The position numbers and the translations under genes were made by a program. The notes under the pieces were generated by a model. It was not told the origin of the DNA. It saw nothing but the letters and a program-made list of their open reading frames with translations, and made no database searches. Shown here in pieces: positions 30,209 through 52,515 of a stretch of 64,000 nt of DNA. The DNA comes from Microtetraspora sp. NBRC 16547 (GTDB lineage: Bacteria > Actinomycetota > Actinomycetes > Streptosporangiales > Streptosporangiaceae): NCBI RefSeq assembly GCF_030268965.1, contig NZ_BSSE01000018.1, forward strand, positions 1-64,000. Direction: 5' to 3'. The first letter of the stretch is position 1; every line of letters begins with the position of its first letter.

Positions 30209-31759
30209 TCAGACGATCTTGCCGGACCAGAGGTTGGCCGCGGACTTGTAGACGCCGTACAACTCGCCGTCGAAGTACGGCGAGTAGCTGGTGTCGTAAC
30301 GGTTGTTGTTGTCGGTGTCGGAGACGCCGATGGTCACACCGTTCAGGTAGCCCAGACGACGGCCGCTGCTGTAGTTCACCAGCCAGGAGGAGCCGAGGGC
30401 GCCCTCACCGGTGAACGACGACTTGGTCCCGACGAGCTCCTCGCCCTTGATGGCCGGGGCCTGGACCGCGAAGGTCTTGCCGTAGGTCCACTTGAGCGTG
30501 TGGCCGGTGAAGGCGTAGTTGCCGTCGGGGTGCGACCCGCTCGGGTAACCGAACACGTAGACCGGCTTGCCGACCTTCTGGTTGTAGGCCAGACCCTGAC
30601 CACCGACGTTGTCGCCCAGGCGGCCGATGTCCCGCAGCGCGACGACGAAGTAACGCTCCGCCTTGTGGGTCCAAACCTCCTTCGTGGTGGCCTTGAAGCC
30701 GTAGTTCACCCAGAAAGTCCGCTTGTAGTACCTGGTCTCGCCGTTGACCTTCTTGTAGAAGTAGAGGGTCTTCCTGTCCTCGCTGTGGTAGCTGGGGTCA
30801 CCCTCGTAGTCCTTGGGGTCCATCTCGACGGTGGTGACGCCGGTGCCGGCGGCCCAACCACCGTCGTCGCTGTCGCTCTTGCCCGGGTTGAAGGACAGGA
30901 ACTCGTCAGCGGTGGCGCTCTCGTTGAGGGTCGAGTGCTCGGTGCCCTTGGGGACGACCTTGGTCTTGTCGACCTCGTAGGTCGTCTTGGTCTCCTTCGT
31001 GGACTTGTCGCTGGCCTTCGGGTTCGCCTTCAGGAAGGCGTCCAGCTCCTCCTTGGTCTTGAAGGTGCTGGTCACGACCTTGCGAACGTTCTCGGCGTAC
31101 TTGGCGGCCTCGGCCTCCTTGACCTCCGAGGCACCGTCCAAGGTGACGCCGTTGTAGACCGTCACGAACGCGTAGTCGCGGTCGGCGTCCTCGTAGACGT
31201 CGAAGTCGTAGTGGGTGAAGGCCTGCTTACCCACGTAGATGCCCCACGGGGCCTTGGCCTTGTAGTAGCCGGGGATGAAGACCCACTTGTCGAGGACGTG
31301 GGCGTTCTTGCCGGTGTCGTACACGCAGTGACCGGCCGTGGCGACCAGGTTGCGGTAGCCGGCCTGCACCGAAGTGGCCGAGCACCAGTGCGGGTTGCCG
31401 TCGGCGCCGAGGAAGAACACCTTGCCGGTGGTCTTGGGCAGGTTGACGTTCTTGGACCTGGCGGTCGACTTCTTCTCGTCGCCGATCGCGGGCACGATGC
31501 CGGGCTTGCTGTCGGGAGCGGGGCCGCCCTTGGAGACGAGCTTGGCCGAGACGGGCTTGGTCTCCACACCGTAGGGGCTGGCGCCGATCAGGTTGGCGGC
31601 CTTCTCGCCCAGCCAGAACTGGGCGATCTGGTTGGCGGCGAAGGGAGTGCCGGCCAGCACGTCGGTCGCGATCTTGTCGGCGGCGTGGGCCGGGGTGGTG
31701 ACGATGGCGGCGGCCAGGAGGCCGGCCGCCGCACCACCAGCGGCGATGATGCGCTTCAT
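30209..31759 (-). CDS. Secreted trypsin-fold protein, probable pseudoprotease
   Basis: 516 residues with a signal peptide (MKRIIAAGGAAAGLLAAAIV, cleavage near AHAAD). The trypsin fold is seen in RNLVATAGHCVYDTG (catalytic His), YEDADRDYAFVTVYN (Asp) and TGEGALGSSWLVNY. There the canonical G-D-S-G-G-P serine position reads Leu. A Lys/Glu-rich insert of about 140 residues parts the Asp and C-terminal lobes. About 60% of the protein aligns with the paralogue at 50887-52455. The ATG at 31759 has AAGGAG upstream. Leader and CRP-type site are shared with that paralogue. Confidence 0.8.
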   Translation of the reverse strand: MKRIIAAGGAAAGLLAAAIVTTPAHAADKIATDVLAGTPFAANQIAQFWLGEKAANLIGASPYGVETKPVSAKLVSKGGPAPDSKPGIVPAIGDEKKSTARSKNVNLPKTTGKVFFLGADGNPHWCSATSVQAGYRNLVATAGHCVYDTGKNAHVLDKWVFIPGYYKAKAPWGIYVGKQAFTHYDFDVYEDADRDYAFVTVYNGVTLDGASEVKEAEAAKYAENVRKVVTSTFKTKEELDAFLKANPKASDKSTKETKTTYEVDKTKVVPKGTEHSTLNESATADEFLSFNPGKSDSDDGGWAAGTGVTTVEMDPKDYEGDPSYHSEDRKTLYFYKKVNGETRYYKRTFWVNYGFKATTKEVWTHKAERYFVVALRDIGRLGDNVGGQGLAYNQKVGKPVYVFGYPSGSHPDGNYAFTGHTLKWTYGKTFAVQAPAIKGEELVGTKSSFTGEGALGSSWLVNYSSGRRLGYLNGVTIGVSDTDNNNRYDTSYSPYFDGELYGVYKSAANLWSGKIV

Positions 31760-36939: not shown

Positions 36940-39342
36940 TCAGAGGTTCAACCCGACCAGCAGCGGGTCGTGGTCGGAGGAGCGGTAGGCGTCCGGCGCG
37001 TACAGGTACGGCGGGTTGAACTCGGTGTTGTAGTCCATGAACCGGCCCTCGTCGCTGTTGATGTGCCAGATGGTGGCACCGGTCACCAGCTTGCTCAGCT
37101 TCCGGTCGGCCAGGGCGTGGTCGAGCTCGCCGGAGAGACCGTTGAAGACATAGCTGTAGCGGTCCTTCGCCGAGACGTACTTCTTGCTCAGGCTGGTCAG
37201 CCCGCCCACCTCCAGAGCGTGGATCGGGTCCTCCTCGCCGTACGCGTTGATGTCGCCGAGGACGAGCGTGTTCTGGAGCTTCAGGTCGTCGATCAGGGCC
37301 AGCATGGCCTGGGCCTGCTTGACTCGCTTGGCGTTGTAGCAGCTCTGGCCGTCGCCCTGGTCGGCGTCGGCACCGGTGGCGGCGCCGTCGACGTCGCTGC
37401 AGCCCTTGGACTTGAAGTGGTTGACCAGCACGGTGAAGGTCTGGCCGTCCCCGCTCGCCTTGCGGAACGTCTGAACCAGCGGCGGCCGGTTGAAGACCGG
37501 GTCGGGAGAGGACTGCGCCGCGCCGACCGGGGTGACCTTGGCCGGCTTGTAGATCAGCGCGGTCTGGATCAGATCGGTGCCCGGGTTGGGGTGGGTGATC
37601 GCCTTGTAGGTGCCCGCGCCGGCCTTGGCGTTGAGCGCGTCGACCAGGGCGTTCAGCGCCACGTCGGAGTTGCGCTCGATCTCCATCAGCCCGGCCACGT
37701 CAGGGTCGAGCCCCATGATGTTGGCGACCAGCTTGGCGAGCTGCCTGTCCCGTTCGACGGCGGTGGTCGCGCCCCGGGACTTGAGCGTGGTGAACCAGTT
37801 GAGCGTGTTGAGGCTCGCCACCCGGACGTCGCCGCCGACATTCGCGGGCATTGCGGGACGCGGGTTCGCCGGCTCGAAGACGACGGGCTGGGTCGGCTGG
37901 AGCCGGTAGGCCCCGAAGCCCTCGGTGAGCACACCGGTCAGGTTCTTGACCTCGTCGCCGAGCCGGACGGTGTTCGACCCCTCGGAGTGGTACGGCAGGG
38001 TCGCGGGGTTCTGGACGTTGGAACCGTCGTCGAGCAGGATCGTCCGCCGCGCGTCCTTCTCGCTGTCCACACCCTTGCGGTCGGTCGGCTGCCACAGGCG
38101 GCCGCCCTCCGAGAGGGTGATCTCGCCGAACCGGCCCAGGTTGTAGATCTCCGAGGCGGCCAGGTCGCCCTTGAAGGTGACGAGCATGCCCTCGTAACGC
38201 TCGAAGGTGATCCCCTTCTTGAGCGGCAGCTTCACCTCGGTCGGCTTGATGGTGCCGGTGCCGCAGATGTTGACCGCGGTGGCCGGCGAGATCTCGGTCA
38301 GGCCGTTGTACTCGATCGCCTTGCCGGAGACGAGGACGTGGTCACCGACCTTGACCGGCGACGAGGAGAACACGAACAGGCCCTCGGAGGTCGCCGGGTC
38401 CTTGTCCGGCTTCGGGTCCTGGACGTAGAAGCCGTTGAACTGGCCGGCCCCCTGGTAGGCGCCGACGACAATGCCCTCGACCCGGACGTCTTGCCCGGCG
38501 ACCGGGCTGACGTCGCCGTCCCCCTGCACCTGCGCGATCCGGTGCGTGATCGGAGTGTCACACGTGTCGGTCGGCGTCGGGCTCGCGCTGGGGCTCGGGC
38601 TGGCCGAGGTCGTCGGAGAAGCCGACGGCGAGACCGATGGGGAGACGGTCGGAGAGGCCGACGGGGACGGGTCGCCGCCACCGCACGGCGCGGGCGGCGT
38701 GGCGGAGTTGCGCGGGGCGGGGGCCGTGACGTCGAAGTCGGCGCCGTTGTCCTCGGTGTCGGCGCAGCCGCCGTTCTTGCGGATCCCGGCGGTGCTGTTC
38801 GTGAGAGCGGGGGCGGGGGTGCCCTTGAAGAAGTTCGCCGCGCCGTACCCGACGAGGTCGGCGACGAGCGCCATCTGCTCGTCGGTGCAGGGGGTGGTGG
38901 AGCCGTTGCAGACCAGGCCGTCGGCGGAGCGGACCAGCGCCACCTTGCCCGCCGTGCCGCTCATGTTGATGGTGCCGACGTCATCGGGCGTGGGGAGCGA
39001 GCCGCTGGCGGTGGTACCCGCGGCGAGCTGGACCAGGTGGTACTGGCCGGGCGCGAGGGTTCCGGTCAGGGCCGTCTTGTTGGCGGAGAAGTTTCCGGTT
39101 CCGCTCGCGCTGGTGTACTGGACCGACCAGCCGTTCAGCGATACGGGGGCCGCGCTGCGGTTGAAGAGTTCGACGTAGTCGTTGGTGAACGGGGCGCCGG
39201 AGTTTCCGCCTCCGCCGTACACCTGGCTGATGACGACGGTGCCCTGCGCCGCGACGGCAGGAGTTGAGGGGAGGGCCGCGATCGAGCCGACGGTGACGCC
39301 GGCAGTCACAAGGATCGCGAGTGCCCGGGGCATAGCACGCAT
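36940..39342 (-). CDS. ExeM/NucH-family secreted endonuclease
   Basis: 800 residues with signal peptide (MRAMPRALAILVTAGVTVGS, cleavage near AVAAQ). A lamin-tail domain (about 35-190; VISQVYGGGGNSGAPFTNDY) leads to a Ser/Pro/Thr linker (about 225-260), an OB-fold (about 265-390) and an endonuclease/exonuclease/phosphatase domain (about 500-800). That domain has VASLNTLNWFTT, DVAGLMEIERN, NHFKSKG, LGDINAYGEEDPI and YRSSDHDPLLVGL. The catalytic Asn, Glu, Asp and His residues are present. It would degrade extracellular DNA. Both M1 and M4 are possible starts. Confidence 0.93.
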   Translation of the reverse strand: MRAMPRALAILVTAGVTVGSIAALPSTPAVAAQGTVVISQVYGGGGNSGAPFTNDYVELFNRSAAPVSLNGWSVQYTSASGTGNFSANKTALTGTLAPGQYHLVQLAAGTTASGSLPTPDDVGTINMSGTAGKVALVRSADGLVCNGSTTPCTDEQMALVADLVGYGAANFFKGTPAPALTNSTAGIRKNGGCADTEDNGADFDVTAPAPRNSATPPAPCGGGDPSPSASPTVSPSVSPSASPTTSASPSPSASPTPTDTCDTPITHRIAQVQGDGDVSPVAGQDVRVEGIVVGAYQGAGQFNGFYVQDPKPDKDPATSEGLFVFSSSPVKVGDHVLVSGKAIEYNGLTEISPATAVNICGTGTIKPTEVKLPLKKGITFERYEGMLVTFKGDLAASEIYNLGRFGEITLSEGGRLWQPTDRKGVDSEKDARRTILLDDGSNVQNPATLPYHSEGSNTVRLGDEVKNLTGVLTEGFGAYRLQPTQPVVFEPANPRPAMPANVGGDVRVASLNTLNWFTTLKSRGATTAVERDRQLAKLVANIMGLDPDVAGLMEIERNSDVALNALVDALNAKAGAGTYKAITHPNPGTDLIQTALIYKPAKVTPVGAAQSSPDPVFNRPPLVQTFRKASGDGQTFTVLVNHFKSKGCSDVDGAATGADADQGDGQSCYNAKRVKQAQAMLALIDDLKLQNTLVLGDINAYGEEDPIHALEVGGLTSLSKKYVSAKDRYSYVFNGLSGELDHALADRKLSKLVTGATIWHINSDEGRFMDYNTEFNPPYLYAPDAYRSSDHDPLLVGLNL

Positions 39343-41854: not shown

Positions 41855-41960
41855 CGTCCTCCTGGTCCCGGCGAATTGCCGCTTCTCCCGGTGCAAGATA
41901 CCGTAGCCATCCAGATGATGGGATCATGTGTTGTCGTCATTTAAAAGGAGACGTTCCGGA

Positions 41961-43253
41961 GTGGCACGCATCGGTGATGGCGACGACCTGCTGAAATGCA
42001 CATTTTGCGGAAAAAATCAGAAGCAGGTCAGGAGGCTGATCGCGGGACCGAGCCCCCTGTGCATCTGCGACGAATGCGTCCAGCTCTGCAACGAGCTCAT
42101 CGAGGAGGAGAACGCCGAGTCCTCCGGCCCGGAACGGGGCGACCTGCCGAAACCGCGGGAGATCCACGCGTTCCTCGACCAGTACGTGATCGGCCAGGAG
42201 AACGCCAAGAAGGCACTCTCGGTGGCGGTCTACAACCACTACAAACGCGTCCTGGCAGTGACCGGACGGAACGACGCCACGAAGGAGGAACCGGTCGAGC
42301 TGGGCAAGTCCAACATCCTGCTGATCGGCCCGACCGGCTCCGGCAAGACCTACCTCGTCCAGCGGCTCGCCCGGATGCTGGACGTCCCGTTCGCGATCGC
42401 CGACGCCACCGCGCTCACCGAGGCCGGCTACGTCGGGGAGGACGTCGAGAACATCCTGCTCAAGCTGCTCCAGGCGGCCGACTACGACGTCAAGAAGGCC
42501 GAGACGGGCATCATCTACATCGACGAGATCGACAAGATCGCCCGCAGGGGCGAGAACCCGTCGACCACCCGCGACGTCTCCGGCGAGGGCGTCCAGCAGG
42601 CGCTGCTGAAGATCCTCGAGGGCACCGTCGCGAGCGTGCCGCCGCAGGGCGGGCGCAAGCACCCCCACCAGGAGTTCCTCCAGATCGACACGAGCGACGT
42701 GCTGTTCATCGTCGGCGGCGCCTTCATCGGCCTAGAGCAGATCATCGAGCAACGGGTCGGTCGCGGGGCCGCCGGGTTCGGCGCCGCGCTCCGCACCGCG
42801 CACGATCGGGAGAGGACGGATGCCTTCGCCGAGGTCACACCCCAGGACCTGCTGAAGTTCGGGCTGATCCCGGAGATCGTCGGCCGGCTCCCGGTGGTGT
42901 CCACCTTCCACCCGCTGGACCGGACCATGTTGACCCGGATCCTCACCGAGCCGCGCAACGCGCTGCTCAAGCAGTACCAGCGGCTCTTCGAGCTCGACGG
43001 CGTCGAGCTGGAATTCACCGCCGACGCCGTCGGCGCGATCGCCGACCAGGCACTGCTGCGACGCACCGGCGCCCGGGGAACCCGCGCGATCCTGGAAGAG
43101 GTCCTGCTCAACGCGATGTACGAGGTGCCCGGCCGGGACGACGTGGCCCGCGTCGTGATTGACCGGGAGACCGTGCTCGACAACGTCAACCCGACCCTCG
43201 TACCGCGCGAGCGCCCCGGCCGCAGGCAGCAGGGCCACGAGAAATCCGCCTGA
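41961..43253 (+). CDS. clpX: Divergent ClpX paralogue (AAA+ unfoldase)
   Basis: 430 residues. The zinc-binding domain (four Cys: CTFCGK, CICDEC) is followed by an AAA+ core with Walker A GPTGSGKT, Walker B IIYIDEID, pore-1 loop GYVGED, RKH loop and sensor II TGARG. The IGF tripeptide that docks to ClpP reads AGF (AAGFGAALR), and Walker A continues YLVQRL where ClpX has LLAQTL. No clpP or tig is adjacent. The GTG at 41961 has AAAAGGAG at good distance and matches the family start MARIGDG. It lies 66 bp before an operon of unknown function. Confidence 0.9.
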
Positions 43254-43319: not shown

Positions 43320-44093
43320 GTGGAACTGGATGCGCTGGAAGCACGCATCACCGAACTACGCGGAGAGATACGGCTCGCGAAGGCCGGCGGCGACGACGAC
43401 GCGAAGGTCCGGCGGCTGCGAGCCGAACTGCGCACGGCCGAGCGCGCCTGGGACGACGCGCTGGATCGCGGCTCCGAGCCGGACGACGCGCCGCCGCTGC
43501 TGCCGATCCGCGAACAGGTCCACCAGGCGCTGACCCTGCTCGGCGCACCCTCCGCGAGCAGGGTGATCGTCGCCGTCAACGATGCGTTCTTCGCCGGCCG
43601 GGTCGCCGCCACACAGCTGACCAGCCTGCGGCGGGACGAGGAGAGGTCGTTCCGCTCCTCGCCCTATGCCCGGCCGTACTATCTGTGCGCCGCGCTCACC
43701 GCGGAGCTGCTGTCCCCGGCGCGCGGCCTGCTCGCGATCAGCACCTGGCCGGTGGCCGTGCGGATCATCGGCCCGCTCAGCCCGCGCACGGACTTCCTCA
43801 CCTCCGCGATCCGCGTCGCGGAGCATATGACCAGACTCACCGGCGCGGGTGGATCCGCCTCTTCCGGGGCGTACCGGCTGCTGACGAGGATGGCGCGGAA
43901 CATCCCCGGCGCGGTCGAGGGCTTCGGGCGGGCCGATCCCGCCCGGGTGGTCGGCGCGGCCAACGCCGAGCTGGTCGTCCATCAGGAGAACGACCGGCGG
44001 GATCGGCATGCGGCAGCGGAACGCGCCACCACGCGGTTGGACGAGGTCACCCGCCTCTTCGGGGCCGGGCTCAGGTCCGCGTCCGCCTCATGA
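43320..44093 (+). CDS. Hypothetical coiled-coil/winged-helix-like protein, first gene of nuclease-helicase operon
   Basis: 257 residues. An N-terminal coiled coil (about 1-48; ELDALEARITELRGEIRLAK) is followed by a helical region LLPIREQVHQALTLLGAPSA and TQLTSLRRDEERSFRSSPYA, which recalls actinomycete winged-helix proteins. The rest is helical and Arg-rich. No enzyme motif is seen. It could be a DNA-binding or adaptor subunit. It has a GTG start at 43320 and runs in the same direction as the nuclease, unknown and helicase genes, with a 179-bp gap before the next. Confidence 0.65.
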   Translation: MELDALEARITELRGEIRLAKAGGDDDAKVRRLRAELRTAERAWDDALDRGSEPDDAPPLLPIREQVHQALTLLGAPSASRVIVAVNDAFFAGRVAATQLTSLRRDEERSFRSSPYARPYYLCAALTAELLSPARGLLAISTWPVAVRIIGPLSPRTDFLTSAIRVAEHMTRLTGAGGSASSGAYRLLTRMARNIPGAVEGFGRADPARVVGAANAELVVHQENDRRDRHAAAERATTRLDEVTRLFGAGLRSASAS

Positions 44094-44110
44094 AACGCCG
44101 CCTCCTGAAC

Positions 44111-44193
44111 CCGATCCAGACCGATCCAGAGGAACCCATCCCGAACCGACCATCCCGAACCAGCCACTCCGAACCGGCCAGTCCGAACCGACT
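44111..44193. repeat. Short tandem repeats in operon gap
   Basis: Four degenerate 14-bp units follow one another at 44138-44193 (ATCCCGAACCGACC, ATCCCGAACCAGCC, ACTCCGAACCGGCC, AGTCCGAACCGACT). A perfect 10-bp duplication, CCGATCCAGA, stands just before at 44111-44130. They occupy the only sizeable gap of the operon. They may be a slippage product or a protein-binding array. Confidence 0.7.
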
Positions 44194-44272
44194 ACCGCAA
44201 GCGACCGGTCCGGAGCGACCACTGCGAAGTGAGCGCTTCCCGACCACCGATCCCACGACCCACGAGGACCGA

Positions 44273-45394
44273 GTGAACAGCCCCAACCACCGGCTCGACG
44301 CCCTGCGAGGCGGCGTCGCGCCCGTCGATCACAACGCCCGCACCATCGCGGCCCTCGCCGGCAACCCCGGGTGCGACCGGCGGGCCGTGCTGGACGCGGC
44401 CGGGATCCACAAGCAGAGCATCGCCGTCCACCTCGGCCACCCCGCCCCCTTCGGGCAGTCCCCGTTCGCCCTGGACCGGGCCCGGGCGTTCGAGGAGCTG
44501 GTGAAGGCCGACGGCTGCGCGCACCTGGTACGGCTGCTGCGTGAAACGCTCGGCCTGTCGGTCCCCGAGGTGGCCTACACCGACATCGCGGACGTCGGCG
44601 GCAACACCGCCCACCAGCTGCGGCACACCCGTACCCTGGCCGAGCTGCGGCGGGCCGCCGAGGACGGCGAGAGGAGCGGCACGCTCTTCGACCACCCGCT
44701 GCTCAAGCTTCCGGTCGCGGGCCACGAGGTCTACCTGGAGCCGTCCGTCATCGCCTTCCAGATCAGGGGCCGCTTCCACATCGTGGAGATCAAGTCGTTC
44801 GCGGTCATCGACGGGACCGCCGACTCCGGGCAGGTCGCCGCCGCCTCCCGGCTCTCCGCGGTCTATGTGTACGCGCTGAAGGCGCTGTTCCGGGCCGAGG
44901 GCATCGATCCCGACCGGGTGTCCCACGAGGTCGTGCTGGTCTGTCCCAAGGACTTCGCCAACCACCCGACCGCGACCCTGCTCGACGTGCGCCAGCAGCT
45001 CGCCTCGTTGAACCGGCAGCTTTCGCGGCTCACCAGGATCGACCGGATCCTCGACCACCTCCCGCCGGAGCTCACCTTCAGCCTGGAGCAGTCGCCCGCT
45101 GAGCTGGCCCGGGCGATCCGCACGGTCGAGGCCCGTTACGCGCCCGAATGCCTGTCCGCCTGCGAGATGGCGTACTTCTGCCGGGCCGACGCCCGCGTCT
45201 GCGGCTCGGTGGACGTCCTCGGCCGCGCCACGCGCGACGAGCTCGGCGGCCTGGAGTCGATCGACGCGGTACTCGACCTCACCGCCGGCGACCGCCTCAC
45301 GTCGCCAGAGCAGGCCGAGATCGCCGACCAGCTCCGCTACGTCCGCGCCGTCTACCGCGAACACGCGTCGGCGGGGGCGGAGGCGGTCGCATGA
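44273..45394 (+). CDS. Cas4/RecB-like PD-(D/E)XK nuclease with Fe-S cysteines
   Basis: 373 residues. The nuclease core has YLEPSVIAFQIRG with a candidate acidic residue, then HIVEIKSFAVID (E172-x-K174) and SGQVAAASRLSAVYVYALKA (Q187 and Y198, the Q-x-x-x-Y type helix). A C-terminal cluster CLSACEMAYFC (C293, C297, C303, with C310) plus C34 near the N-terminus fits a 4Fe-4S cluster as in Cas4 and AddB. The GTG at 44273 follows GAGGACC. Its stop overlaps the next start in ATGA. It would cut or resect DNA with the helicase of the operon. Confidence 0.75.
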   Translation: MNSPNHRLDALRGGVAPVDHNARTIAALAGNPGCDRRAVLDAAGIHKQSIAVHLGHPAPFGQSPFALDRARAFEELVKADGCAHLVRLLRETLGLSVPEVAYTDIADVGGNTAHQLRHTRTLAELRRAAEDGERSGTLFDHPLLKLPVAGHEVYLEPSVIAFQIRGRFHIVEIKSFAVIDGTADSGQVAAASRLSAVYVYALKALFRAEGIDPDRVSHEVVLVCPKDFANHPTATLLDVRQQLASLNRQLSRLTRIDRILDHLPPELTFSLEQSPAELARAIRTVEARYAPECLSACEMAYFCRADARVCGSVDVLGRATRDELGGLESIDAVLDLTAGDRLTSPEQAEIADQLRYVRAVYREHASAGAEAVA

Positions 45395-46835
45395 GCATCG
45401 TGACCTCCTACGCCCGCGCGCTGGCCGCGCACGAGGGACGCGCCCAGCCGATCGCGACCGTACGCACCTGCACCTGTCGGCCACACCCATGGTGTTCATC
45501 CCGCTCAAGCTCGCGGGAGAGGCCGCCGCGCCGCTGGGCGCGATGGTCGGCACCGATCCGGCCGAGCCCCACCTGCTGGTCGTGCCGCAGCCGCGCAACC
45601 GGGATCTGCGGTTCGCCTTCATGTCGGAGCTCGCCCAGATCATGCTCCCGTACATCGAGGGCTTCGCCACCGCGAAGGAGACGGTCAGCGGCAGGAACGA
45701 GCGCGAGCGCTACCTCGACGCGCCGCAGGTCATCGTGCCCGGGCGGCGCGGGGTCGAGTTCGTCCGGCTGCTCGGCCGCTCCACCAGGTTCCGCCGGTCC
45801 GACGGCCCCTACCCGGTCGATCCCTCCGTGCCCGTCCTCGGCCAGTGGCTGACCTTCCTGTACGAACGCGGCGAGTTAGCCGGATCGTCGGCGTTGCTCG
45901 CCATGACCGACGCGCTGTCCCTGCACTGGGCGACCGGGCAGAGCCCGATGGAGGACGCCAACCTCGCCACGCTGCTGGCCTGGATCTCCCCGCCGCCCGG
46001 TCTCACCGGCCAGGAGGCGGCGGCCGCGGCCGAGAACCCGATCGACCGGCCCCCGGCGGGCCCCGACACCGATCCCGGTTTCGACGCCCAGGTCCTGCAG
46101 CCCGCGATCCGGGCGTACGACGCCTCCGGCTCGCCCGCCCTGGTCCGCCAGGCCCTGCGCACCCAACTGGAGCCGACCTGGCGGCTCATGTGGGAGGCCG
46201 TGGACCTGATGCGCGCTCTTCCGGAGGCGGCGAGCGTCGCCGAACGGTGGGCCATCGACAGGGACCAGTACACCCGCGAGGTCACCCGGCTCGCCGAGGG
46301 CGGGCCGCCCCGGGGGCGCCGCGACCAGGCGGGGCCCGCCGCGATCCGGCTGTGGGACATGGAGGGGGCACAACAGTCCTACGACGCGCAGCGCGCCTAC
46401 GACGACCCCCTGGTCATGACCGAACACCGCGCGGCCGGCAAGGCGTTCACCGGCGAGGCGGTCCATGTGGACGCGGACCGGAAGATCCTGCTGCCCGGAG
46501 GGAAGAAGCCGGTGCCGCGACCGCTGGTCACCGTCCGCACCAGCGACCCGGTACGGCTCACGCCGGGCAAGAGGGTCTTCTCGGTGCACCGGCGCAGGCA
46601 GTCCGGGGAGATCGTGGAGATCGACGGCGATCTCATCGTCGTCCAGCTCAACGACCAGCTCGCCAAGGGCGCGGGCGTACCCACCCCCGGTGACGCGGTC
46701 TGCTTCACCGAGCTCGACCTCGGCGGGCGGATCCGGCCCGGTTTCCCGACCGGTGAGGAGACGCCGTGGACCCATGGCGGCCCGCCCGCCGCGTACGTGC
46801 CGACCGACGAGGACGCGGTGGAGGCCTGGTCATGA
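45391..46835 (+). CDS. Unknown operon protein, apparent 1-nt frameshift near 45465
   Basis: About 481 residues when joined. It starts MSIVTSYARALAAHEGRAQP, and a second frame continues HLHLSATPMVFIPLKLAGEA from about 45465; one base seems missing between them. From there the frame is open to 46835. The region has no classic motif. It includes a mixed helical part (RLLGRSTRFRRSDGPYPVDP) and a C-terminal beta-rich, SH3-like part (KRVFSVHRRRQSGEIVEIDG). Its start overlaps the nuclease and its end overlaps the helicase, both by ATGA. Thus it belongs to the complex. The shift could be a sequence error, a mutation or recoding. Confidence 0.7.
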
Positions 46836-48238
46836 CCGTTCCCCACTCGACCCCCTACTCGACTCCCCACTCGACCCGCTTTCCGACCGGCGGCACAGCC
46901 GAGACCGCAGACTCGGCCGACTCAGCCGGCGGCACTGGCGGCTTCGGCAGTGCGGCCGAGGCCGCCGGCCGGGCCACCGCCGCGATCCTGGCCGACTTCG
47001 CCGGCGGCGGCCACCGGGGCGTCATCGTGGACTCCCCGCCCGGAGCGGGCAAGTCCACGCTCGTCGTGACCAGCACGCTTGAGCTGGCCGGGGCCGGGGA
47101 ACGCCTGATGATCGTCGCCCAGACGAACGAGCAGGTCGACGACCTGGCCGACAAGATCGCCATGCGGAATCCCGCGCTCACGGTCGGCCGCCTCCACAAG
47201 GACGGCTTCCAGGTCCCCGAGCGGGTGGTCCGGCATCCCGGCGTCACCGCGTCCAAGAAGATCGACGACGTGGCCTCCTGCGCGGTGGTCCTCGCCACCG
47301 CGGACAAGTGGGCCTACGTGTCCGGCCACACCTGGAAGTGGGCGATCATCGACGAGGCCTACCAGATGCGCTCGGACAAGCTGCTGGCCATCGCCGCGCT
47401 GTTCGAGCAGGCATTGTTCGTCGGCGACCCCGGCCAGCTCGATCCGTTCTCCGTCGTCGACACCGAGCGCTGGGCGGGCCTGGCCTGGGATCCGATGCAG
47501 AGCGCCGTGGCCGTCAGCGCCCGCCTCAACGACCTTCCCGTACACCGGCTGCCGGTCTCCTGGCGGCTTCCGGCCTCGGCCGCCCCGCTCATCTCGGAGG
47601 CGTTCTATCCGTTCACCCCGTTCCGGTCCGGCACGGCGCACGGGGACCGCTCCCTGGAGTTCACCGCCGCCGGATTCCCCGCCTCCTGGGACGGCACGCT
47701 GGACGAGGCCGCCGCGACGGGATGGGCGCTGCACGAGCTGCCCAGCCGCCACACCATCCGGACCGACGCCGACGCCGTACAGGCATGCGCGGCGCTGGCC
47801 ACCCGGTTGCTGCGGCGCGGCCCGGTCGCCCACGACGAGCACGGCTCCCACGTGGTCGACGCCACGCGGATCGCCATCGGGGCGGCGCACAACGACCAGG
47901 TGGCCGCCATTCGCGCCGCGGGCGTCCCCCCGGGCGTGACCGTGGACACCGCCAACCGGCTCCAGGGCCGCGAGTACGACGTGACCATCGTGCTCCACCC
48001 GCTGTCGGGACGGCGCGACGCGACCGCGTTCCACCTCGAATCCGGCCGCCTGTGCGTGCTGACGTCGCGCCACCGCCACGCCTGTGTCGTCGTCGCCCGC
48101 GCCGGGATCCCCGAGCTCCTCGACGCCCACCCCAGCACCGGGCGGGTGCGACTCAACGTGCCGGTCAAGTTCCCCGACGGCTGGGAGGCCAACCACGCCG
48201 TCCTCGCCCATCTCGCCGCCCATCGCGTTCCCGGCTGA
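46832..48238 (+). CDS. SF1 (Upf1/Dna2-like) helicase
   Basis: 468 residues, all helicase motifs present: Walker A VDSPPGAGKSTLVV, motif Ia region LMIVAQTNEQVDDLADKI, motif II WAIIDEAYQM, motif III LFVGDPGQLDPF, motif IV/Va VSWRLPASAAPLI, motif V VDTANRLQGREYDVTIVL and motif VI LCVLTSRHRHACVVV. The N-terminus carries a Ser/Thr-Pro repeat (about 1-35). It likely unwinds DNA or RNA for the Fe-S nuclease encoded upstream. The ATG at 46832 overlaps the preceding stop. A 30-bp palindrome ends the operon. Confidence 0.88.
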   Translation: MTVPHSTPYSTPHSTRFPTGGTAETADSADSAGGTGGFGSAAEAAGRATAAILADFAGGGHRGVIVDSPPGAGKSTLVVTSTLELAGAGERLMIVAQTNEQVDDLADKIAMRNPALTVGRLHKDGFQVPERVVRHPGVTASKKIDDVASCAVVLATADKWAYVSGHTWKWAIIDEAYQMRSDKLLAIAALFEQALFVGDPGQLDPFSVVDTERWAGLAWDPMQSAVAVSARLNDLPVHRLPVSWRLPASAAPLISEAFYPFTPFRSGTAHGDRSLEFTAAGFPASWDGTLDEAAATGWALHELPSRHTIRTDADAVQACAALATRLLRRGPVAHDEHGSHVVDATRIAIGAAHNDQVAAIRAAGVPPGVTVDTANRLQGREYDVTIVLHPLSGRRDATAFHLESGRLCVLTSRHRHACVVVARAGIPELLDAHPSTGRVRLNVPVKFPDGWEANHAVLAHLAAHRVPG

Positions 48239-50886: not shown

Positions 50887-52455
50887 TTAAAGGATGGATC
50901 CGGACCAGACGTTCGCCGCCTGCTTGTACACGCCGTACGTCTCACCGTCGAAGTAGGGCGACAGGCTGGTGTCGATGCGGTTGTTGCCGTCACGGTCCGC
51001 GATGGCGATGGTGACGCCGTTCAGGTAGCCGAGGCGGCGGGCGTTGCTGTAGTTGAGCAGCCACGCCGACCCCATGGAGCCCTCACCGGTGAAGGACGAC
51101 TTGACGCCCTGCAGCTCCTCGGCCTTCATGGAAGCCGCGGACGCGGCGAAGGTCTTGCCGTAGCTCCACTTCTGGGTCTGCCCGGTGAAGGGACGCGTGC
51201 CGTCCGGGTGGGAGCCGCTCGGGTAGCCGAACAGGAAGATGTTCTTGCCGAGCTTCTGGTTGTAGGCCAGGCCCTGACCGCCGACCTTGTCTCCCAGGCG
51301 ACCGGCGTCGCTCACGGCCCGGATGATGTAGCGGTCCTTGTAGTACTTCTCCTGGACGTCCTTGACCCACTTCTTCACGAAGTACTGCTTCTTGTACGCC
51401 TCGACGAACCGCTTGCCGCGCTTGACCTGGAGGTCGCCGAGGAACTTGCCGGCCTTCTTGTCCTTGCTCAGCTGGTGGTACTCGCGCATCGAGATGCGGG
51501 TCCACTGGTCGCTGCTGTTACCGCACCAGGACGGGCACTTCTCGCCGTTCTTCATGGCTTCGGTGCCGTTCGGGGCGGCCTTGTAGTCGGCGGCCTTGAC
51601 CTCAACGGCGGTCAGCCTGATGCCGTTGATGCCCTTGGTGTAGTACTCCTCGTGCTTGGCATAGCCGTCCGCCGGAGGGTCGACCTCGACCGCGTCGCTC
51701 CCGGCGACCTGCTTCCAGTACGGCCCGCCCTCGGTGTACTTCTCGGCGAACTCGGCGGCGCTGACCTCCTCGGAGAGGATCTGCTTGTCGCCGGTGTAGG
51801 CGTCGTAGGTCTTCTTGTCGACTTCCTTGTCACCGGCGATGCTGATGCCGTTGTAGACGGTGACGAACGCGTAGTCGCGGTCGCCGTCCTCATAGACGTC
51901 GAAGTCGTAGTGCGTGAAGGCCTGCTTGCCCACGTAGATGCCGAAGGGCGCCTTGCCCTTGTAGTAACCGGGGACGAAGACCCACTTGTCGAGGGTGGCC
52001 TTGCTGCTCTTCGTGTCGTACGCGCAGTGCCCGGCCGTGGCGACCAGGTTGCGGTAGTTCGCCTGCACAGAGGTGCCGGAGCACCAGTGCGGGTTGCCGT
52101 CGGCACCGAGGAAGAACACCTTGCCGGTGGTCTTCGGCAGGTTGACGTTCTTCGACTTCGAGGTCGTCTTCTTCTCGTCGCCGATGGCGGGGACCGTGCC
52201 GGGCTTGGTGCTGGCCGCCGGGCCGCCGCCGGAGACGTGCTTGGCCGTGACCACCGGGTCCACGTTGTACGGCGTCGCTTCCTCCAGCGACTGCGCCGTC
52301 CAGAAGAACGCGACCTGCTGTGCCGCGTTCGAGGTCCCGGCGAGGGTCTCCTTGACCTTGTAGTCGGCCGCCTGGGCCGGGGTGGAGACCAGGGCGGTCG
52401 CGAGGAGGCCGGCGGCGGTTGCGAGGGTTCCGCCGATGGCGAGGGTGCGCTTCAA
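50887..52455 (-). CDS. Secreted trypsin-fold protein, paralogue, probable pseudoprotease
   Basis: 522 residues with signal peptide (a TTG start reading LKRTLAIGGTLATAAGLLAT, cleavage near AQAAD). The His is in RNLVATAGHCAYD and the Asp in YEDGDRDYAFVTVYN. The canonical serine position reads Met in TGEGSMGSAWLLNY. An insert between the lobes includes a C-x-x-x-C pair (KCPSWCGN). It is a paralogue of the 30209-31759 protein. The TTG at 52455 has AAGGAGAT upstream and matches the paralogue's MKR start; a longer start at 52491 would begin MTSHDS. A CRP-type site lies at 52710. Confidence 0.82.
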   Translation of the reverse strand: MKRTLAIGGTLATAAGLLATALVSTPAQAADYKVKETLAGTSNAAQQVAFFWTAQSLEEATPYNVDPVVTAKHVSGGGPAASTKPGTVPAIGDEKKTTSKSKNVNLPKTTGKVFFLGADGNPHWCSGTSVQANYRNLVATAGHCAYDTKSSKATLDKWVFVPGYYKGKAPFGIYVGKQAFTHYDFDVYEDGDRDYAFVTVYNGISIAGDKEVDKKTYDAYTGDKQILSEEVSAAEFAEKYTEGGPYWKQVAGSDAVEVDPPADGYAKHEEYYTKGINGIRLTAVEVKAADYKAAPNGTEAMKNGEKCPSWCGNSSDQWTRISMREYHQLSKDKKAGKFLGDLQVKRGKRFVEAYKKQYFVKKWVKDVQEKYYKDRYIIRAVSDAGRLGDKVGGQGLAYNQKLGKNIFLFGYPSGSHPDGTRPFTGQTQKWSYGKTFAASAASMKAEELQGVKSSFTGEGSMGSAWLLNYSNARRLGYLNGVTIAIADRDGNNRIDTSLSPYFDGETYGVYKQAANVWSGSIL

Positions 52456-52466
52456 GGGGGGATATC

Positions 52467-52515
52467 TCCTTGGGCTGTCGTGGGACGTCATCTACGCCCC
52501 ATCCGTCAGTTAAGG
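52467..52515 (-). promoter_or_regulatory. Conserved leader segment, copy B
   Basis: Aligns gap-free with copy A at 31767-31815, including the Shine-Dalgarno and the CTGTCGT and CGTCAGT blocks. Confidence 0.6.

What the first reader, a model, noticed from the sequence alone, without database searches (positions are those of the whole stretch)
43320..48238. Four-gene operon: coiled-coil protein, Cas4-like Fe-S nuclease, unknown protein, SF1 helicase
Seen: 4-bp ATGA overlaps join nuclease, unknown and helicase; nuclease has E-x-K, Q...Y helix and a C-x3-C-x5-C cluster; helicase has all SF1 motifs. Known: Fe-S PD-(D/E)XK nuclease plus SF1 helicase is the logic of AddAB, Dna2 and several defence systems. 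Inference: a dedicated DNA-processing or anti-phage machine, with two subunits of unknown kind. I do not recognise it as a named system.
Basis: partly seen in the sequence, partly recalled or inferred. Interest (0 to 1): 0.85.

Follow-up and report, generated by a model that had tools for sequence, protein, structure and literature searches.

The report
Split DNA2-like helicase-nuclease gene cluster
Four neighbouring genes in an actinobacterium look like a DNA-chewing machine of the human DNA2 kind broken into separate parts; relatives of the set sit beside DNA-break enzymes and anti-plasmid defence systems, but in this genome the cutting site itself is lost and one gene has a frameshift.

Summary
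The four genes are real and conserved: CC-NUC-UNK-HEL recurs in this order in most of 80 loci outside the window. Predicted structures and profiles indicate that NUC is an iron-sulphur RecB/Cas4-type nuclease fold, HEL a bare UPF1/DNA2-type SF1B helicase core, and that UNK's C-terminal part is the stalk plus beta-barrel that such helicases normally carry in one chain. One Streptomyces fuses UNK to HEL. Gene order equals DNA2 domain order, so I call it a split DNA2-like helicase-nuclease.
Elsewhere the set lies next to SbcCD and Wadjet (all three types, exchanged repeatedly) or next to pPIWI-RE. Nuclease catalytic residues are intact in 28 of 28 SbcCD/Wadjet loci and lost in 13 of 13 pPIWI-lineage loci, while the cysteines stay.
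The window copy is a solitary, vertically inherited chromosomal version. Its nuclease has lost two motif residues (D to S158, Q to L194), and its clade is likewise damaged; UNK carries a one-base deletion. It is probably not a working nuclease and not shown to be a defence system.
Closest characterised enzyme: Bad, a fused bacterial DNA2-like protein. Novelty: a new variant, a split form with an undescribed tie to Wadjet.

The parts
43320..44093 (+). CC: 257 aa, N-terminal coiled coil and a conserved C-terminal region with no known family
   Evidence: ORF; conserved in 22 aligned sequences, 50-85% identity to the window; no Pfam/PDB family
44273..45394 (+). NUC: 373 aa RecB/Cas4-type PD-(D/E)XK fold with four invariant cysteines C34, C293, C297, C303; catalytic positions S158 (D in family), E172, K174, L194 (Q in family), Y198
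   Evidence: AF2 model pLDDT 91.9; VIA Z 9.9 Cas4, 8.5 AddAB, 8.4 RecB; alignments
45391..46835 (+). UNK: DNA2/IGHMBP2-type stalk plus beta-barrel subunit; frame broken near 45463, intact ORF 45489-46835
   Evidence: AF2 model of the M. glauca orthologue pLDDT 92.0; residues 310-453 match IGHMBP2 Z 9.8, Dna2 Z 8.1; frameshift
45463..45464 (+). site of the one-base deletion relative to all five close relatives compared
   Evidence: DNA alignment; amino-acid context in 80 loci
46832..48238 (+). HEL: 468 aa SF1B (UPF1/DNA2-like) helicase core, motifs intact
   Evidence: Pfam AAA_30/AAA_11/AAA_12; PDB profile hits SMUBP-2 9e-12, DNA2 1e-7, UPF1 2e-6; motifs

Best explanation
The operon encodes a multi-subunit, split DNA2-like helicase-nuclease. 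HEL is the ATP-driven SF1B core (domains 1A and 2A). UNK supplies in trans the stalk and beta-barrel (1B) that other SF1B helicases carry in the same chain, plus an N-terminal domain of its own. NUC is the iron-staple nuclease subunit placed before the motor as in DNA2. CC is an accessory, probably assembling or DNA-binding subunit. In related loci it is inferred to work as the DNA-end processing arm: SbcCD (Mre11-Rad50) opens or holds ends made for example by Wadjet, and the 5'-3' motor with NUC degrades or resects the strand. In the pPIWI-RE lineage and in the window's clade the nuclease site is lost but the cysteines and the motor are kept, so there the complex would act as a translocase with NUC as a structural or DNA-gripping subunit. 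Shown here: conservation, folds, motifs, genomic partners, loss of catalytic residues. Inferred: complex formation, polarity, order of events.
For: Conserved set and order. NUC fold: Cas4/AddAB/RecB/EXO5/DNA2 matches and four invariant Cys. UNK C-terminus matches stalk plus 1B barrel of IGHMBP2 (Z 9.8 over 124 residues, model 310-453 to chain 5-153), Senataxin, Sen1, DNA2; Foldseek's top hit is DNA2 at E 6e-3. HEL begins just before motif I and aligns to IGHMBP2 from residue 196, so UNK + HEL add up to one IGHMBP2-type helicase. UNK-HEL fused in one 933-aa ORF in L236. 27 of 140 loci have SbcD beside the set; Wadjet I, II or III lies beside 20 (one on a partial match only); the 112 loci without SbcD or Wadjet-linked relatives show neither (PADLOC). 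NCBI annotation of a linear plasmid shows SbcC-SbcD, the four genes (three 'hypothetical'), then JetABCD. Wadjet type changes 7, 8 and 2 times on the module's tree. Catalytic residues intact in 28/28 SbcCD/Wadjet loci. Bad, the fused bacterial DNA2-like enzyme, is a 5'-3' translocase and ssDNA endonuclease (PMC7430649).
Against: UNK structure matches are moderate, Foldseek E is above 0.001, and beta-barrels are common folds. No sequence homology of UNK to fused bacterial enzymes, and that of NUC is weak. No complex was modelled. In genomes of one family HEL lies about 37-40 kb from NUC-UNK. The window copy lacks SbcCD/Wadjet neighbours, two nuclease motif residues and an intact UNK frame, so the mechanism may not operate there.
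Confidence: 0.66

Rival explanations
1. The window operon is itself a dedicated anti-phage or anti-plasmid system.
For: Relatives sit with Wadjet, SbcCD, pPIWI-RE and type III RM; presence in the window's family is patchy, 17 of 37 genomes.
Against: No SbcCD, Wadjet or pPIWI-RE gene within about 10 kb of the window copy. Flanking genes are shared between related species, which speaks for vertical descent. Nuclease motif residues are lost throughout the clade. No phage or viral copy.
Confidence: 0.15
2. It is a housekeeping DNA-repair end-processing machine that replaces fused bacterial DNA2-like/TM0106 proteins in some actinomycetes; the islands later recruited it.
For: Syntenic core-chromosome copies in Streptomyces, most of them about a third of the chromosome length from the nearer end, with intact nuclease. 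Complementary distribution with TIGR03491: 3 genomes share both against 23.7 expected of 395, and no genus shares both in the window's family.
Against: Distribution is confounded by phylogeny. No knockout data. Does not explain the tie to three Wadjet types.
Confidence: 0.4
3. Its substrate is RNA or an R-loop, as for UPF1, SMUBP-2 and Sen1, its closest helicase relatives.
For: Best profile and fold matches include RNA helicases; one lineage is tied to pPIWI-RE/DinG, proposed to act on R-loops (PMC3702460).
Against: The NUC fold is of DNA-nuclease type, and the SbcCD and Wadjet partners act on DNA.
Confidence: 0.12
4. The window copy is a decaying remnant: a frameshifted UNK and a dead nuclease.
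For: One-base deletion in UNK, S158 and L194, and remnants of a further HEL elsewhere in the same genome and in another genome of the family.
Against: dN/dS between the window and M. glauca is 0.19-0.36 for the four genes; helicase motifs intact; UNK intact in the compared relatives, so the deletion is recent or a draft-assembly error.
Confidence: 0.3

Closest known systems
Bad, bacterial DNA2-like helicase-nuclease of Geobacillus (PMC7430649)
   Same: Four-Cys iron-staple RecB-family nuclease before an SF1B helicase, with a central domain absent from eukaryotic DNA2
   Different: One polypeptide; no CC subunit; no tie to SbcCD or Wadjet found in the passages read; nuclease active
Eukaryotic DNA2
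   Same: Domain order nuclease, beta-barrel, stalk, SF1B helicase equals gene order NUC-UNK-HEL; works with Mre11-Rad50 (established knowledge)
   Different: Single chain; Cys spacing here is C-x3-C-x5-C; UNK has an additional N-terminal domain
TIGR03491 (TM0106) RecB-like nuclease + RNase_H_2 + SF1 helicase fusion
   Same: Same order of nuclease and helicase; four Cys; HEL matches its helicase at 97.6% probability
   Different: Fused; has RNase_H_2; UNK shows no profile match to it; rarely in the same genome
Wadjet (JetABCD) types I-III
   Same: Adjacent to the SbcCD-linked form of the module
   Different: A four-gene SMC system in its own right; the module shares no gene with it
AddAB / AdnAB
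   Same: Iron-staple or RecB-type nuclease with SF1 helicase for end resection
   Different: UvrD-type SF1A helicases fused to nucleases, not SF1B with split subunits
Mokosh MkoA (PADLOC)
   Same: Helicase similarity; weak hit 5e-9 over short stretches
   Different: Large protein model of 1112 positions; no four-gene set

Membership tests
DNA2/Bad helicase-nucleases | Nuclease and SF1B helicase fused in one polypeptide | tested here: not met
   Separate genes in the loci examined; the only fusion is UNK-HEL in L236
DNA2/Bad helicase-nucleases | Four-Cys iron-staple pattern spanning the nuclease | tested here: met
   C34, C293, C297, C303 kept in all loci apart from two incomplete rows
DNA2/Bad helicase-nucleases | Intact RecB-family nuclease residues (D, E-x-K, Q...Y) | tested here: not met
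   Window S158, L194; intact in most relatives outside two lineages
DNA2/Bad helicase-nucleases | SF1B helicase with 1B barrel and stalk | tested here: met
   Met by HEL + UNK together; moderate structural scores
DNA2/Bad helicase-nucleases | 5'-3' translocation, Fe-S cluster, ssDNA cleavage in vitro | not testable with these tools
   Needs purified protein
TIGR03491 (TM0106) | Match to the NCBIfam model over its cut-off | tested here: not met
   No match of NUC, UNK or HEL; none in the window's genome
Wadjet | JetA, JetB, JetC and JetD genes | tested here: not met
   None beside the window copy; a separate type II Wadjet on another contig
Cas4 / CRISPR adaptation | Linked Cas1/Cas2 or CRISPR array | not tested
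   Not searched with dedicated models; none noticed among the called neighbours
Named anti-phage systems in PADLOC 2023 | Match to a system model over most of a protein | tested here: not met
   Only partial helicase-core hits for HEL; none for CC, NUC, UNK
AddAB/AdnAB/RecBCD | SF1A UvrD-type helicase fused to the nuclease | tested here: not met
   HEL hits UPF1/DNA2-type models and no UvrD model; separate genes

The most novel reading that the evidence does not exclude
The SbcDC + CC-NUC-UNK-HEL cassette is a general second stage for SMC-based immunity: Wadjet of any type linearises circular DNA, Mre11-Rad50 takes the ends, and the split DNA2 degrades them; a nuclease-dead edition serves pPIWI-RE, which brings its own nuclease, and a solitary dead edition persists in the window's clade as a motor.
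Probability: 0.4. Interest if true: 0.86.

Novelty: new variant of a known kind. Interest (0 to 1): 0.71.

Why it matters
The physiological role of bacterial DNA2-like enzymes is open (PMC7430649). Here a split form comes with likely partners beside it in the genome: Mre11-Rad50 and, repeatedly and interchangeably, all three Wadjet types. That suggests what happens to plasmid DNA after Wadjet cuts it, and gives a compact cassette to test. The repeated loss of the nuclease site with the cysteines kept also offers natural separation-of-function forms.

Tried and rejected
ClpX (41928-43253) as a fifth member: second genomic copy, not near the set in any other locus. Phage or viral origin: no hits. 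Plasmid copies: three records, one of them of chromosome size. UNK as RNase_H_2: not supported; the VIA match of UNK 31-275 to a viral DNA polymerase complex chain (Z 8.1, 4% identity) is left as inconclusive. CC: no family. PDB hits of NUC's profile to designed proteins concern positions 17-91 only and look like helical-repeat chance matches. Exclusivity with TIGR03491 was tested per genome and, in the window's family, per genus; a phylogenetically corrected test was not made.

Full report
Observation. The window holds four + strand genes: CC 43320-44093, NUC 44273-45394, UNK 45391-46835 and HEL 46832-48238. ATGA overlaps join NUC-UNK and UNK-HEL. The frame opened at 45391 is broken: relative to five close relatives one base is missing between 45463 and 45464, and the intact frame runs only from 45489. 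The fetched relatives have an uninterrupted N-terminus of the type 'MS..TSYARAL...ATVRHLHLS'. This is a recent mutation or a draft-assembly error (151 contigs). Codon comparison with Microtetraspora glauca gives dN/dS 0.27, 0.36, 0.19 and 0.23 for CC, NUC, UNK and HEL, so all four were under purifying selection until lately.

Conservation. The order CC-NUC-UNK-HEL was found in most of 80 loci of genome contigs, in Streptosporangiaceae, Thermomonosporaceae, Streptomyces, Amycolatopsis, Actinokineospora, Nocardia and Actinoplanes; NUC, UNK and HEL occur in 81 of 81 loci with the window, CC in 72 by gene calling. A second ClpX lies upstream in the window only and is not part of the set. NUC occurs in 18 of 60 relatives, 71 of 395 Actinomycetes genomes, one of these a marginal match, and 13 of 296 of the phylum sample.

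What the proteins are. Pfam, NCBIfam and PADLOC recognise only HEL. HEL's profile hits SMUBP-2, DNA2 and UPF1 in the PDB, starting at the region just before motif I; motifs are kept across 140 loci with rare substitutions. The NUC model (pLDDT 91.9) matches Cas4 (Z 9.9), AddAB (8.5), RecB (8.4), EXO5 (8.1) and DNA2 (6.0), and C34, C293, C297 and C303 are kept apart from two incomplete rows. The UNK model was made on the intact M. glauca orthologue (pLDDT 92.0). Its residues 310-453 match stalk plus beta-barrel of IGHMBP2 residues 5-153 (Z 9.8), and likewise Senataxin, Sen1 and DNA2; Foldseek alone is weaker (DNA2 first, E 6e-3). Since HEL takes over at IGHMBP2 residue 196, UNK and HEL together make one complete SF1B helicase. 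In L236 the two are one 933-aa ORF without a stop. NUC-UNK-HEL thus repeats the domain order of DNA2 as separate chains. UNK's N-terminal 275 residues and CC remain unassigned.

Neighbours elsewhere. In islands outside Streptosporangiaceae the set is flanked by SbcD-SbcC and Wadjet. PADLOC models identify type I (L047, L088, L096), type II (L057, L065) and type III (L046). Of 140 loci with all three core genes, 27 have SbcD and 20 have Wadjet (L236 on a partial match only, L068 without SbcD); none of the other 112 has either (Fisher 4e-18, not corrected for relatedness). On the tree of the concatenated proteins the Wadjet type changes 7 (I), 8 (II) and 2 (III) times, and near-identical modules carry type I or type II (quick search, SH-aLRT support only, some long branches). 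Repeated exchange of the cassette beside one module argues for a functional tie. An alternative is that the module marks an insertion hotspot, but then other systems should appear as often. Base rates matter: Wadjet is in 42% of Actinobacteria and is enriched towards Streptomyces chromosome ends (PMC10482375). One JetA1 model found it in 11 of 296 Streptomyces, 2 of these with HEL sequence next door, one of them only a fragment. A linear Streptomyces plasmid carries SbcC-SbcD, the four genes (annotated hypothetical x3 and AAA ATPase) and JetABCD near its end. In five of the six Streptomyces in which the SbcCD lineage lies on a chromosome-sized contig the module is 4-25 kb from the contig end, in three of them at both ends.

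A second island lineage, 13 Streptomyces loci, is tied to the pPIWI-RE triad (11 seen; one of the other two is on a short contig) and in L160 to type III restriction-modification. A third context is the syntenic core chromosome of Streptomyces without CC.

Active site. Family residues D, E-x-K and Q...Y are intact in 28 of 28 SbcCD/Wadjet loci and in the Streptomyces core and Nonomuraea-type loci. They are damaged in 13 of 13 pPIWI-lineage loci (L-x-R, or Q..R) and in all 16 loci of the window's clade (Microtetraspora, Planotetraspora, Rhizohabitans, Acrocarpospora, Sinosporangium), always with the four cysteines kept. The window has S158 and L194.

Comparison with the known. Bad is a fused bacterial DNA2-like enzyme with Fe-S cluster, 5'-3' motor and ssDNA endonuclease; its biological role is open (PMC7430649). 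TIGR03491 fusions share the order nuclease, RNase_H_2, helicase; HEL matches their helicase (97.6%), NUC only weakly (E 0.005, 7% probability, cysteines aligned), UNK not at all. Genomes mostly carry one or the other: 3 shared against 23.7 expected of 395, none shared among 44 genera of the window's family (P 2e-4, uncorrected for phylogeny). That hints at replacement. A fused chain defines DNA2/Bad; this set fails that test, so I say it works like DNA2, not that it is DNA2.

Verdict. Architecture: fairly sure. Function in islands (end processing with SbcCD after Wadjet): likely but inferred. Function in the window: a solitary motor complex with a dead nuclease, or a decaying copy; open. The library of papers lacks most subscription journals, and PADLOC is of 2023, so a later or unread description of the Wadjet-linked set cannot be excluded.

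Noticed in passing
41928-43253: Second, divergent ClpX directly upstream; the best-scoring ClpX copy is on another contig (C55). Not near the operon in other species.
   Followed up: partly
L260 (own genome, contig C25): The window's genome has a Wadjet type II cassette elsewhere, beside a possible helicase-like ORF.
   Followed up: partly
L261:1053-1558 and L262:9114-9690: Fragmented remnants of a further HEL gene in the window's genome and in a relative.
   Followed up: partly
L217, L220, L238, L239, L145: Streptomyces SbcCD-linked copies lie 4-25 kb from the ends of chromosome contigs, in three genomes at both ends; a link to telomere biology is possible.
   Followed up: partly
L263/L264 and L147/L148: In two genomes of one family HEL is separated from NUC-UNK by tens of kb; in the one read, transposase-like ORFs lie beside HEL.
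   Followed up: partly
L242, L243: Very divergent NUC-UNK-HEL sets without CC in small genomes elsewhere in the phylum (24-36% identity).
   Followed up: no
36940-39342: ExeM/NucH-family extracellular nuclease on the - strand (NCBIfam 3e-170), apparently unrelated to the operon.
   Followed up: no
30209-31759 and 50887-52491: Two similar-looking secreted proteins with signal-like N-termini flank the region; possible paralogues.
   Followed up: no
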